NCBI RefSeq assembly: GCF_900091725.1
Contig: NZ_FMBW01000071.1
Span: 434,001-498,000, forward strand
DNA from: Streptomyces sp. DvalAA-43
Lineage (GTDB): Bacteria > Actinomycetota > Actinomycetes > Streptomycetales > Streptomycetaceae
Direction of reading: 5' to 3'
DNA: 64,000 bases
Part shown: positions 17,358 to 48,947 of the stretch, one piece after another
Layout of the letters: each line of letters starts with the position of its first letter
How positions within the stretch are numbered: the stretch's first letter is position 1
The notes under the pieces: generated by a model
Seen by the model: the letters and a program-made list of their open reading frames with translations, nothing else
Databases searched by the model: none
Told to the model about the DNA's origin: nothing
Program-made: the position numbers and the translations under genes

Positions 17358-17605
17358 GACAAGCACCTCCTGGCATCGAGGGGTTTCGAGCGGCGTCTGG
17401 CGGCATCGGGGGTCGTCCGATGCCGAGGGGTGTCGAAATACATCGAAATGTCGAGCGCTGTCCGAGGCGCCGTTGTGGCGCGCCTCACCTACCGATTGTT
17501 CGGTCGTGAGCGCATTTTGGCTACAGGCACCTTCAGCCTGTGGACAAACGGTTCTCCACAGCCTGGGATAGAGGCAGGTCGTCCAGGACAGGGAGGCGGG
17601 GGCAC
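17358..17605. promoter_or_regulatory. bkdA/AsnC divergent regulatory region
   Basis: These 248 bp must hold the bkd and AsnC promoters. They contain ACCGA-N4-TCGGT (17491-17504), matching the palindrome in front of the paa genes, a consensus DnaA box on the minus strand (TGTGGACAA, 17539-17547) and a one-mismatch box (TTCTCCACA, 17552-17560). The stretch is AT-richer than its surroundings. Confidence 0.6.
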
Positions 17606-46355: not shown

Positions 46356-47123
46356 CTACTTCACGGGCTCCGCGTAGTGGAGGTCCACTGTGCCCGAGTA
46401 GCCGGGAAGAGTCACCGCCTCGTGCTCCTCGACTTTCCAGCCGAGCCCGTACGCCTTCACATACAGCAGGTAGTTGCTGATCGCCGGGGAGCCGTTCAGC
46501 GCCTGCTTGAGCTTGCCCGGGTCGCCGACCGCGGTGATCTTGTACGGCGGGGAGTAGACCCGGCCCTGGAGGATCAGGGTGTTGCCGACGCAGCGCACCG
46601 CGCTGGTGGAGATCAGCCGCTGGTCCATGACCTGGATGCCCCGGGCGCCGCCCTGCCAGAGGGCGTTGACGACCGCCTGGAGGTCCTGCTGGTGAATGAC
46701 CAGGTCGTTGGGTTGCGGGTCGGGGTAGCCGGGGTTGGCGGTGGCGTTGGGCGGGGCGTCGTCGAGGGTGACGGAGACCGAGCGGCCGGTGAGTTTCGTG
46801 GTGCCGCCGGCCCGCTCCAGCTCCTTGAGCCGGGCCTCCTCCGCCTTGGTGCTGCTGTCGTCCCGCCGGACGAGGGCGTCGATATCCTGGCGCACGGCCG
46901 CGGTGGTCTCGTCCAGCTGGGCGTTCTTGTTGCTGCGCTGCTGGATGAGGTCGGAGAGCTTCAGCAGCGAGGAGTCGGTGCGGATGTTGGTGCCCTTGGC
47001 CGTATTGGCGCTGGTGACGAAGATCAGTCCGGCGAGGGCGAAGACGGCAGCCGTGAGCACACGGACCGGGTGCCGGAAGGTGCGCCGGACCGGCCCTTGG
47101 GAGGAGTCGGCAGAATTGCTCAA
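46356..47123 (-). CDS. DUF881 family membrane-anchored protein
   Basis: The 255-residue protein has a membrane helix ([19 protein letters not shown], about 22-41), a coiled region (about 55-110) and a DUF881 domain with [33 protein letters not shown] and [23 protein letters not shown] split by short gaps. DUF881 proteins sit next to division genes in many Gram-positive bacteria, with unknown function. The TTG at 47123 matches the usual N-terminus (SNSADS). It heads the minus-strand sortase operon and diverges from crgA across 140 bp. Confidence 0.9.
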
Positions 47124-47263
47124 CGTACCCTTATCTCCTTCGGCGCCAGGGAAGCACTACGCTAACGGACGCCCGGGGGAGGCAGTATTCCCCCTCGGCC
47201 CCGCCCCGGCGCCAGCCACAGTTACCTGCGCGGTCACGCAGCGCATCGACAGGAGAGTTCCTC

Positions 47264-47518
47264 GTGCCGAAGTCACGTATCCGCAAGAAGGCCGACTTCA
47301 CGCCCCCTCCGGCGAAGCAGGCAACCAACATAAAGCTGACCAGCCGCAGCTGGGTGGCGCCGGTGATGCTGGCGCTCTTCCTGATCGGTCTGGCCTGGAT
47401 CGTCGTCTTCTATGTGACCGACGGCGATCTGCCGATCAAGGACCTGGGGAACTGGAACATCGTCGTCGGCTTCGGCTTCATCGCCGGTGGCTTCGGTGTC
47501 TCCACGCAGTGGAAGTAG
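47264..47518 (+). CDS. crgA: Cell division regulator CrgA
   Basis: The 84-residue protein is a standard CrgA: a basic start ([15 protein letters not shown]), two membrane helices (about 30-50 and 63-80) and the short loop with [11 protein letters not shown]. CrgA inhibits FtsZ ring assembly in Streptomyces aerial hyphae and coordinates divisome and wall synthesis in mycobacteria. It starts at a GTG. Its stop codon lies inside the first unit of a 17-bp repeat. Confidence 0.96.
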
Positions 47519-47574
47519 CACCGCAGCGGAAGTAGCACCACAGCCGAAGTGATGCCGCAATGGCGGTAGCGCCG
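47507..47574 (+). repeat. Four-copy 17-bp repeat across the crgA stop
   Basis: Units begin at 47507, 47524, 47541 and 47558. The first two are CAGTGGAAGTAGCACCG and CAGCGGAAGTAGCACCA; the last two are more diverged. The first contains the crgA stop. The period is not a multiple of three. Confidence 0.78.
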
Positions 47575-47625
47575 TGGCACTCTCCCCTGCACGACGGGGC
47601 CCGGTCCCGCAACCCTTGCCCCGAG

Positions 47626-47826
47626 TTACCCACAGCGTTATCCACAGGCGGGGGAAAAGGTCAGACGATCTGTGGATAACTCCCTGACGGTTGACGCCGA
47701 TGTGACTGCAGTCTCCCCCATCGGGGGATGGCACGCCCCTTGTCCCTACTGGAAATACCCAGCTCAGCGACAAGGGGCACAGTTGTTCCCACAGAATGCA
47801 CAAGATCCGGCACCCGCTGTGGACAA
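47626..47826. other. DnaA-box cluster between crgA and the rhomboid gene
   Basis: The intergenic region 47519-47873 contains two perfect TTATCCACA boxes in opposite orientation (47638-47646 forward, 47671-47679 reverse), a perfect TTGTCCACA box in reverse (47818-47826) and a one-mismatch TTACCCACA (47626-47634). No other function is visible there. DnaA binds such boxes. A group of three exact boxes in 190 bp outside oriC is likely to bind DnaA in the cell. Confidence 0.82.
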
Positions 47827-47873
47827 CTACGGCCGCTGACGACCGCCGACGACCGCCCCGAGGGCGATGCCGC

Positions 47874-48800
47874 TCAGGTCAGCGCGGCCGTTCTGAAGAC
47901 GACCACGAGAATCACGGCCACCAGGACCAGGGCGCAGGTGCCGTACTGCACCAGGGCACGCCGCTCGCGGGGTGCGTGCACCATGCCGATCGCGATCAGC
48001 GTGCCCGCGACCAGGCCGCCGACATGCGCCTGCCAGGCGATCCCGCCCCAGGGGTTGAACGTGATGACCAGGTTCACCGCGAGGAGTACGAGCACCGGGC
48101 GCATGTCGTAGTTGAGCCGACGCATGAGCACGGCGGTGGCACCCAGCAGCCCGAAGATCGCCCCGGAGGCTCCGAGTGAGCCCTGCACGGACGCGGCGAG
48201 CCAGTAGCTGAGGGCGCTGCCGGCCAGGCCGGAGATCATGTACAGCGTGAGATAGCGGGCCCGGCCGAGCGCCGATTCCAGCGGTCCGCCGAGCCACCAC
48301 AGCCCCAGCATGTTGAACGCGATGTGCCACAGCTCCTGGTGCAGGAACATCGACGTCACCAGCCGGTACCACTGGCCTTCCGCGACACCTTCGAGCGGCC
48401 CGCCGTAATGGAATCTGGCCCGGCCGATCAGCATCAGCTCGTCGACCAGCCCGGTACCCCTCGCCAGCACCGCGATGTACACGGCCAGATTGATGCCGAG
48501 GAGGATCTTGGTGACGAGGCGGGGGTCGGCCATCACAGCGCCGCCGGTGCCGGCGCCGCCCGCGACGGTGCGCGGCCGACTGTCGGCCGGCCCGTGCCCC
48601 GTACCCGATCCCTGGCGGACGCAGTCCGGGCACTGGAAGCCGACCGAGGCGTCGACCATGCACTCGGGGCAGATCGGGCGCTCACAGCGGGTGCAGCGGA
48701 TGTTCGCCTCGCGACCGGGGTGGCGGTAGCAGCTGAGCGAGCCGTCCGCGGCAGCGGACTGGTCCGTGTCTCCCGGCGGCTGCCGGTCCATCGGTCCCAT
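47874..48800 (-). CDS. Rhomboid family intramembrane serine protease with N-terminal zinc-binding motif
   Basis: The 308-residue protein has a B-box-like cysteine/histidine motif at about 26-75 (CYRHPGREANIRCTRC, then CPECM and CPDC) followed by a rhomboid domain with six helices. The catalytic Ser lies in GASGAIFGLLGA and the His in GGIAWQAHVGGLVAG. Rhomboids cleave membrane helices of other proteins. The start is uncertain among GTG 48803, ATG 48800 and ATG 48788; ATG 48800 is used. Confidence 0.92.
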   Translation of the reverse strand: MGPMDRQPPGDTDQSAAADGSLSCYRHPGREANIRCTRCERPICPECMVDASVGFQCPDCVRQGSGTGHGPADSRPRTVAGGAGTGGAVMADPRLVTKILLGINLAVYIAVLARGTGLVDELMLIGRARFHYGGPLEGVAEGQWYRLVTSMFLHQELWHIAFNMLGLWWLGGPLESALGRARYLTLYMISGLAGSALSYWLAASVQGSLGASGAIFGLLGATAVLMRRLNYDMRPVLVLLAVNLVITFNPWGGIAWQAHVGGLVAGTLIAIGMVHAPRERRALVQYGTCALVLVAVILVVVFRTAALT

Positions 48801-48947
48801 CACTTCCCGGTCCCTTCGGTCCTCGTCATGGCGAGCACGGCACGCGCGACTCCGCCCCGCCCGTCCGCTATGTAACAGTACGGACGGGCGGGGCGGTTGG
48901 TTCCCGAAAAGGGAATCAGTGTGTGATCACTCGATGACCACAGGTGA

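What the first reader, a model, noticed from the sequence alone, without database searches (positions are those of the whole stretch)
47626..47826. DnaA-box cluster outside oriC between crgA and rhomboid
Three exact DnaA boxes and one near-match lie in a 200-bp intergenic stretch, about 16 kb from recF. DnaA-box clusters outside oriC that modulate replication initiation have been reported in Streptomyces coelicolor; this may be one, comparable in role to datA or DARS. Position next to the division inhibitor crgA could also couple DnaA level to division.
Basis: partly seen in the sequence, partly recalled or inferred. Interest (0 to 1): 0.62.

Follow-up and report, generated by a model that had tools for sequence, protein, structure and literature searches.

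The report
Conserved DnaA-binding locus beside crgA
A short non-coding stretch beside a cell-division gene in this Streptomyces carries a cluster of binding sites for the replication initiator DnaA; the cluster recurs at the same place in many actinobacteria, apparently including the tuberculosis group, where the matching site is known to bind DnaA.

Summary
In detail: three exact DnaA boxes (47638+, 47671-, 47818-) and one near-match (47626+) lie in the 355-bp gap between convergent crgA and rhomboid genes, far above chance. It is one of four places in the 9.3-Mb assembly with three exact boxes within 350 bp; the others are the dnaN-dnaA gap (oriC), the dnaB upstream region and the serS-pheA gap. 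All 79 Streptomyces crgA-rhomboid gaps examined, the window included, hold 2-5 exact boxes. Boxes 3' of crgA recur in 19 of 20 divergent loci of the order and in 20 of 32 other families of the class. The apparent mycobacterial counterpart, Rv0010c-Rv0011c, is a shown DnaA site (PMC7738170); its authors saw "no obvious correspondence" in other species. Most likely this is an ancient accessory DnaA-control locus that binds and so limits DnaA after initiation; that role is inferred. Simple transcriptional coupling to crgA is less likely: a natural inversion left the cluster behind when crgA moved 5 kb. Streptomyces clusters of this kind are known (Smulczyk-Krawczyszyn 2006; not held, recalled).

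The parts
47519..47873 (.). crgA-rhomboid convergent intergenic region that holds the DnaA-box cluster
   Evidence: ORFs and Pfam; alignment of 79 gaps with conserved runs at the boxes and at 47691-47699
47626..47634 (+). DnaA box, one mismatch (TTACCCACA)
   Evidence: the same near-match recurs in a subset of relatives, others have different near-matches around it
47638..47646 (+). DnaA box 1, exact TTATCCACA
   Evidence: a facing TTATCCACA pair (boxes 1 and 2) is present in 79 of 79 gaps
47671..47679 (-). DnaA box 2, exact TTATCCACA, facing box 1; conserved run GATCTGTGGATAAC 47667-47680
47735..47778 (.). conserved hairpin GCCCCTTGTC ... GACAAGGGGC (arms 47735-47744 and 47769-47778) between boxes 2 and 3; possibly a bidirectional terminator
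   Evidence: sequence; six consensus pairs kept in 92-99% of 77 sequences, compensatory changes frequent in two of them (no shuffle control was run); no Rfam match; no T-run terminator in the gap
47818..47826 (-). DnaA box 3, exact TTGTCCACA (the S. coelicolor high-affinity box of PMC4285127 Table 1)
   Evidence: box 2-box 3 spacing 147-150 bp in 66 of 77 sequences; 147 bp here
47264..47518 (+). crgA, cell division protein CrgA (84 aa)
   Evidence: Pfam PF06781, E 6e-30
47874..48803 (-). rhomboid-family membrane protease gene
   Evidence: Pfam PF01694, E 2e-36

Best explanation
An ancestral actinobacterial accessory DnaA-binding locus, placed 3' of crgA and copied early (12-176 kb from dnaA in 40 genomes where I could compare the two). 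SHOWN by sequence: 3 exact plus 1 near DnaA boxes here, kept through Streptomyces and recurring 3' of crgA in much of the class. SHOWN by others for the apparent mycobacterial counterpart: DnaA binds it in vitro and, in M. smegmatis, in vivo, and mutations in it lengthen cells and mimic dnaA mutants. INFERRED: Streptomyces DnaA binds it too, and the locus acts as a high-affinity sink: its copy number doubles soon after initiation, so free DnaA drops and early re-initiation is restrained. It would work together with the other early-copied clusters (dnaB upstream, serS-pheA).
For: Box count against chance. Genome: 98 exact boxes, 24 of them in 132 kb around oriC, 1.4% of the assembly; the only four groups of three within 350 bp are the dnaN-dnaA gap, this one, dnaB upstream and serS-pheA (genes by Pfam). 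79 gaps: 273 exact boxes in 22.5 kb against 6 in 468.7 kb of flanks. Order: 19 of 20 divergent loci. Class: 20 of 32 families, 29 boxes in 8.3 kb against 9 in 125.6 kb; 200 permuted motifs reach at most 2 families. Counterpart Rv0010c-Rv0011c bound by DnaA (PMC7738170); the order crgA-boxes-bPH_6 gene is found in unnamed f6 loci. Two papers say that S. coelicolor DnaA-box clusters can repress untimely initiation (PMC4585315 and PMC10950094, passages). Box crowding near oriC is argued to favour titration in E. coli (PMC12371093, passages).
Against: No binding or initiation data for this organism. The deletion phenotype I recall in S. coelicolor is for cluster D78, not for the crgA one. A pure sink need not sit at one gene, yet this one keeps to crgA in many families. 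12 of 32 families lack an exact box there (8 of the 12 have a one-mismatch box, 4 have none), and G002 (L100) in the same order has none. Families without a rhomboid downstream have boxes less often (5 of 11) than those with one (15 of 21; counted), so the element may decay once the old gene order breaks. Three to five boxes are few beside about 100 in the genome. In G205 (f6) exact boxes are not globally enriched over the reversed control (64 against 50).
Confidence: 0.55

Rival explanations
1. DnaA bound here couples replication to division through crgA: it sets the 3' end, antisense or level of crgA mRNA, or loops to the crgA promoter, so that CrgA follows active DnaA.
For: In the 9 loci with an exact box and a rhomboid more than 600 bp from crgA (f11, f13, f17, f19, f30, f33, f6b, f6c, f6d) all boxes are on the crgA side. 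Boxes also persist where no rhomboid was found within about 2 kb (L120 and L156 of f6, f12, f17b, f29). In three f3 loci boxes also lie 5' of crgA (L104-L106). M. tuberculosis site mutants have longer cells.
Against: Natural inversion in S. triticagri separates crgA from an intact cluster. Neither Rv0010c nor Rv0011c expression is altered in M. tuberculosis dnaA mutants (PMC7738170). Here the boxes are 3' of both genes, and no promoter-like site was found in 47000-48400. Six families without a downstream rhomboid have no exact box by crgA (f5, f15, f21, f22, f27, f32).
Confidence: 0.17
2. A DARS-like site: DnaA assembled here is recharged from ADP to ATP form, so the locus promotes initiation instead of restraining it.
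For: datA and DARS are both non-coding regions that act on DnaA (PMC4585315, start of abstract); near-fixed spacing of boxes 2 and 3 (66 of 77 at 147-150 bp) hints at an ordered complex.
Against: Other authors describe the S. coelicolor and B. subtilis clusters as repressing untimely initiation. Spacing is 123-135 bp in three basal members (L098, L099, L101).
Confidence: 0.1
3. Only a transcription terminator/roadblock between convergent genes: the hairpin and bound DnaA stop RNA polymerase from both sides.
For: Convergent genes with a covarying hairpin between boxes 2 and 3. DnaA-box complexes can stop transcription in one orientation (Schaefer and Messer 1989, seen only as a reference title).
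Against: Boxes persist in f6, where crgA and the next gene run the same way (L120, L150), and after the S. triticagri inversion; no T-run terminator; a terminator would not need DnaA boxes across families.
Confidence: 0.08
4. A passive by-product: boxes accumulate near oriC for general reasons and this gap carries some by descent, without function.
For: Boxes are crowded in 132 kb around oriC.
Against: Conservation far beyond the flanks; the crgA boxes are the only exact boxes in the 160, 80 and 80 kb fetched from G062, G240 and G263, where dnaA is 71, 100 and 176 kb off; the counterpart site has mutant phenotypes.
Confidence: 0.1

Closest known systems
Rv0010c-Rv0011c DnaA site of Mycobacterium tuberculosis and its M. 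smegmatis homologue (Hicks 2020, PMC7738170; abstract, passages and section 9 read)
   Same: Position just 3' of the crgA homologue (that Rv0011c is crgA is recalled; the paper has 0 hits for crgA); two box-like sequences forming a palindrome; part of a set with oriC, dnaB upstream and the rpmH-dnaA region; this genome has boxes at oriC, dnaB upstream and near the 5' end of dnaA.
   Different: The f6 loci tested have a bPH_6 gene right after the boxes instead of a convergent rhomboid, and one exact box each; the Streptomyces hairpin was not looked for there.
DnaA-box clusters H69, H24, D78 of S. coelicolor (Smulczyk-Krawczyszyn 2006, not held; cluster names and results recalled)
   Same: Three clusters outside oriC on a short oriC-centred segment (recalled), as here: crgA gap, dnaB upstream, serS-pheA gap. 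From recalled cosmid contents the crgA one is probably H69.
   Different: Which cluster is which could not be checked: the paper is not in the library and the cosmid names gave no useful paper.
datA of E. coli
   Same: Non-coding DnaA-box cluster outside oriC that limits initiation (role inferred here).
   Different: datA works with IHF and drives ATP hydrolysis (general knowledge; PMC10950094 abstract start); neither was testable; no sequence relation was sought.
DARS1/DARS2 of E. coli
   Same: Non-coding DnaA-binding regions outside oriC.
   Different: DARS reactivate DnaA (PMC4585315 abstract start); the core arrangement and partner proteins were not tested.
B. subtilis DnaA-box clusters (Okumura 2012, seen only as cited)
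   Same: Clusters that repress untimely initiation in a Gram-positive.
   Different: No positional relation to crgA is expected: crgA is described as an actinomycete gene (PMC4255298 passage) and the CrgA family was not found in the B. subtilis control genome (where only Corynebacterium glutamicum of 14 controls had it).

Membership tests
Extra-oriC DnaA-box cluster of Streptomyces | several DnaA boxes in non-coding DNA outside oriC, denser than chance | tested here: met
   3 exact and 1 near box in 201 bp; 9 against 0.43 in the window
Extra-oriC DnaA-box cluster of Streptomyces | kept in other Streptomyces | tested here: met
   79 of 79 gaps (78 of 80 relatives plus the window) with 2-5 exact boxes; of the 2 dropped relatives L023 has three boxes, L032's genome has three by its rhomboid
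Extra-oriC DnaA-box cluster of Streptomyces | bound by DnaA; removal changes initiation | not testable with these tools
   no binding or replication data for this strain
Extra-oriC DnaA-box cluster of Streptomyces | identity with published H69 | tested here: inconclusive
   2006 paper not held; cosmid names gave nothing useful; identity from recall only
Mycobacterial Rv0010c-Rv0011c DnaA site | position directly 3' of crgA | tested here: met
Mycobacterial Rv0010c-Rv0011c DnaA site | facing pair of DnaA-box-like sequences | tested here: met
   47638 (+) and 47671 (-); a facing pair in 79 of 79 gaps and, as a fixed pattern, in 110 of 147 order genomes
Mycobacterial Rv0010c-Rv0011c DnaA site | DnaA binding in vitro and in vivo | not testable with these tools
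   shown for the mycobacterial site only (PMC7738170)
datA | IHF-dependent DnaA-ATP hydrolysis | not testable with these tools
   biochemical property
DARS | three-box core with partner proteins, ADP release from DnaA | not tested

The most novel reading that the evidence does not exclude
The crgA-side DnaA site of Streptomyces and the Rv0010c-Rv0011c site of mycobacteria are one locus, older than the radiation of the class, and form with the dnaB-upstream site (and perhaps a site in the serS/pheA neighbourhood) a conserved actinobacterial DnaA-control set that does work like that of datA. The drug-tolerance and long-cell effects of mutations at the mycobacterial site would then come from disturbing an ancient brake on DnaA, not from a mycobacterial novelty.
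Probability: 0.5. Interest if true: 0.8.

Novelty: new member of a known kind. Interest (0 to 1): 0.6.

Why it matters
Hicks and co-workers found that a DnaA site between Rv0010c and Rv0011c influences cell length and isoniazid survival, wrote that it has no obvious correspondence in other bacterial species, and left its mechanism open. The window supplies a correspondence: the same spot carries DnaA boxes through Streptomyces and in much of the class. That turns a puzzling site of a slow pathogen into an ancestral element that can be dissected in harmless laboratory Streptomyces, and it gives a short list (crgA 3', dnaB 5', serS-pheA) of loci to remove singly and together.

Tried and rejected
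Tried and dropped: Rfam search of 47000-48500 gave 0 matches at E up to 1. The promoter/terminator scan gave nothing in the gap; its one terminator-like hit lies inside crgA. Paper searches with the recalled cosmid names gave no paper on these clusters; 'crgA' with 'DnaA box' gave 2 papers, with no link between the two terms in the passages; 'Rv0010c' with 'DnaA' gave 6 papers, of which I read parts of one, PMC7738170, and saw only the listing of the other five. Helical phasing of the box 2-box 3 spacing (147-150 in 66 of 77, 157-160 in 8) looked attractive, but L098, L099 and L101 have 123-135 bp, so I do not claim it. The idea that the boxes must touch crgA was weakened by the S. triticagri inversion. 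A positional match of the fifth mycobacterial site (Rv3843c-RVnc0040) with serS-pheA was not shown: in G205 a box pair lies 6.8 kb from pheA.

Rows dropped and choices before counts: L023 and L032 from the 79 gaps (no rhomboid in the stretch), reported apart; 2 of 79 gaps from the spacing count (no box pair 120-175 bp apart); G151 from the dnaB count (no DnaB match). The 80 loci are the best 80 of 560, hence close and not independent relatives; the 20 order loci were picked mostly as the most divergent of 147; the 32 class loci are one per family out of 148 genomes, and L122 (f8) is cut by a contig end about 0.5 kb after crgA; 8 further loci of families already sampled gave 8 of 8. One search lists only part of its places; I checked 99 listed places.

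Full report
1. Observation. The region 47626-47826 holds TTACCCACA (47626, +, one mismatch), TTATCCACA (47638, +), TTATCCACA (47671, -) and TTGTCCACA (47818, -). They lie between crgA (+) and a rhomboid gene (-), which converge, so the stretch is downstream of both. The window holds 9 exact TTNTCCACA where dinucleotide shuffles give 0.43; three or more in 192 bp at that rate has probability about 4e-10.

2. Place in the genome. The window is G000:C86:434001-498000 of a 9.32-Mb assembly in 101 contigs; that it is a Streptomyces follows from the near-identical CrgA of named Streptomyces. The assembly has 98 exact boxes against 47 for the reversed control pattern. 24 of the 98 lie between C86:451539 and 583944, 132 kb around oriC, while none lies in C86:260001-451538. 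Groups of three exact boxes within 350 bp occur four times: this gap; the gap between the DnaN and DnaA domains (oriC expected); between a MATE gene and dnaB; and between serS and pheA (Pfam).

3. Conservation in Streptomyces. Of 80 relatives fetched with CrgA (best 80 of 560), 78 plus the window gave a crgA-rhomboid gap: 273 exact boxes in 22,528 bp against 6 in 468,746 bp of flanks. Per gap: 42 with three, 35 with four, one with five, one with two. Of the two dropped, L023 has the three boxes, and L032 has none near crgA. A facing TTATCCACA pair is present in 79 of 79. Box 2 sits in a conserved GATCTGTGGATAAC, and TTGACGCCG at 47691-47699 is also conserved. The distance from box 2 to box 3 is 147-150 bp in 66 of 77. 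Between them is a hairpin; in two of its six consensus pairs compensatory changes are frequent (C-G to T-A in 19 of 77, T-A to C-G in 6 of 77). I ran no shuffle control on it; it may be a bidirectional terminator. In 147 genomes of the order the facing pair TTATCCACA-N15-45-TGTGGATAACT occurs in 110, and the reversed control pattern in none. Of the 99 listed places that I compared with the crgA coordinates, from 96 genomes, 94 lie within 500 bp of crgA, one in each of 94 genomes; five do not (two in G021:C25, and G071:4857701, G032:C15:343715, G100:3550053). The tool cut that list. The 37 genomes without the pattern are not all without boxes: G040, for one, has three exact boxes there at a wider spacing, and f3 genomes have other arrangements.

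4. Beyond the genus. In 20 loci, mostly the most divergent of 147 order genomes, 19 have at least two exact boxes within about 310 bp 3' of crgA; the miss, L100 (G002), has a thiolase gene between crgA and rhomboid and no box. In the class, CrgA occurs in 147 of 148 genomes. One locus from each of 32 further families: 20 of 32 have an exact box within 250 bp after the crgA stop, 29 boxes in 8,288 bp against 9 in 125,567 bp of flank; with 200 permuted motifs the mean is 0.075 families and the maximum 2. Of the 12 misses, 8 have a one-mismatch box within 300 bp and 4 (f5, f21, f22, f32) none. Eight further loci of families already sampled gave 8 of 8.

5. Crowding near oriC does not explain it. 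dnaA lies 12 to 176 kb from crgA in the 40 genomes where I compared the coordinates. In G062, G240 and G263, where it is 71, 100 and 176 kb off, the crgA boxes are the only exact boxes in the 160, 80 and 80 kb fetched.

6. Which neighbour matters? In the 9 loci with an exact box and a rhomboid more than 600 bp away, all boxes are on the crgA side. Yet families without a downstream rhomboid have boxes less often, 5 of 11 against 15 of 21 (counted). In the genome of L032 (Streptomyces triticagri by its record title) crgA, DUF881 and a sortase gene are inverted; three boxes with the usual spacing remain by the rhomboid gene, 5 kb from crgA. This is one case in a draft assembly, but one contig (61,893 bp) spans it. 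I take the cluster to be autonomous, with its place kept mostly by descent.

7. The mycobacterial counterpart. PMC7738170 (abstract, passages, section 9) maps M. [quoted passage not shown] ChIP-seq in M. smegmatis gave homologues of the same five. Gel shift confirmed the second. The recurrent clinical mutations fall, all except one convergent site, in a palindrome of two box-like sequences; reconstructed variants lengthen cells and act like dnaA mutants under isoniazid. Rv0010c and Rv0011c expression is unchanged in dnaA mutants. The authors state that this site and Rv3843c-RVnc0040 have no obvious correspondence in other bacterial species. That Rv0011c is crgA is recalled; the paper has no hit for that name, while PMC4255298 lists SCO3854 as crgA and says that CrgA was studied in M. 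tuberculosis (passages). My f6 loci, probably mycobacterial relatives but unnamed, show crgA, an exact box 55-112 bp on (5 of 5), then, tested in L120 and L150, a bPH_6 gene in the same direction. So the Streptomyces cluster and this site appear to be positional counterparts.

8. A companion site. Upstream of dnaB, 17 of 31 families have an exact box within 400 bp before the DnaB N-terminal domain: 26 in 12,400 bp against 5 in 65,131 bp; permuted motifs reach at most 3 families. This matches the mycobacterial dnaB site. Beside pheA, G040 has 5 exact boxes; in G205 a box pair lies 6.8 kb from pheA, suggestive only. Global enrichment differs: G040 has 114 exact boxes against 27 for the reversed control, G205 only 64 against 50.

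9. Mechanism. Best reading: a high-affinity DnaA sink copied early after initiation. Two papers describe DnaA-box clusters of S. coelicolor as able to repress untimely initiation (PMC4585315, PMC10950094; passages), and crowding of boxes near oriC is argued to suit titration in E. coli (PMC12371093; passages). The S. coelicolor study itself could not be read; from recall, removing its D78 cluster raised the origin-to-end ratio. Direct evidence for the crgA cluster in Streptomyces is missing, and a DARS-like or crgA-coupling role is not excluded.

10. Novelty. The kind is known, and this cluster is probably the published H69 by recalled cosmid names (unverified). Not found in my searches: its class-wide recurrence 3' of crgA and its equivalence with the mycobacterial site. 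The library holds only open-licence papers, and of most hits I saw the listing only, so absence there is weak evidence.

Noticed in passing
L091:6793-6881 (C86:536793-536881): Three exact DnaA boxes between a MATE-family gene and dnaB; DnaA boxes upstream of dnaB recur in 17 of 31 families of the class.
   Followed up: yes
L093:13638-13944 (C86:583638-583944): Three exact DnaA boxes in the serS-pheA gap, about 83 kb from oriC; five exact boxes beside pheA in G040. Probably the S. coelicolor cluster D78 (recalled).
   Followed up: partly
window 17539-17560: Divergent pair of DnaA boxes 13 bp apart between an Lrp/AsnC-type regulator gene and a dehydrogenase E1 gene; a pair with the same letters and spacing exists in G040 at 4469943/4469956.
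   Followed up: partly
L093:2482-2515 (C86:572482-572515): Facing pair of DnaA boxes 25 bp apart, next to an RNA 2'-phosphotransferase (KptA family) gene; same letters and spacing in G040 at 4675960/4675985.
   Followed up: no
window 47735-47778: Conserved, covarying hairpin inside the crgA-rhomboid gap, without Rfam match and without a T-run; function unknown, perhaps a bidirectional terminator.
   Followed up: partly
L234:373-5859: In Streptomyces triticagri the crgA-DUF881-sortase block is inverted away from the DnaA-box cluster, and two further sortase-like matches lie in between.
   Followed up: partly
window 10858 and 33695: Two perfect parS-like sites (recalled motif) in the window; 14 in the 351 kb read around oriC.
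   Followed up: no
L104, L105, L106 (family f3): Exact DnaA boxes also 5' of crgA, 457-538 bp before the crgA stop and, in L104 and L105, about 1330-1390 bp before it, in addition to the 3' cluster.
   Followed up: no
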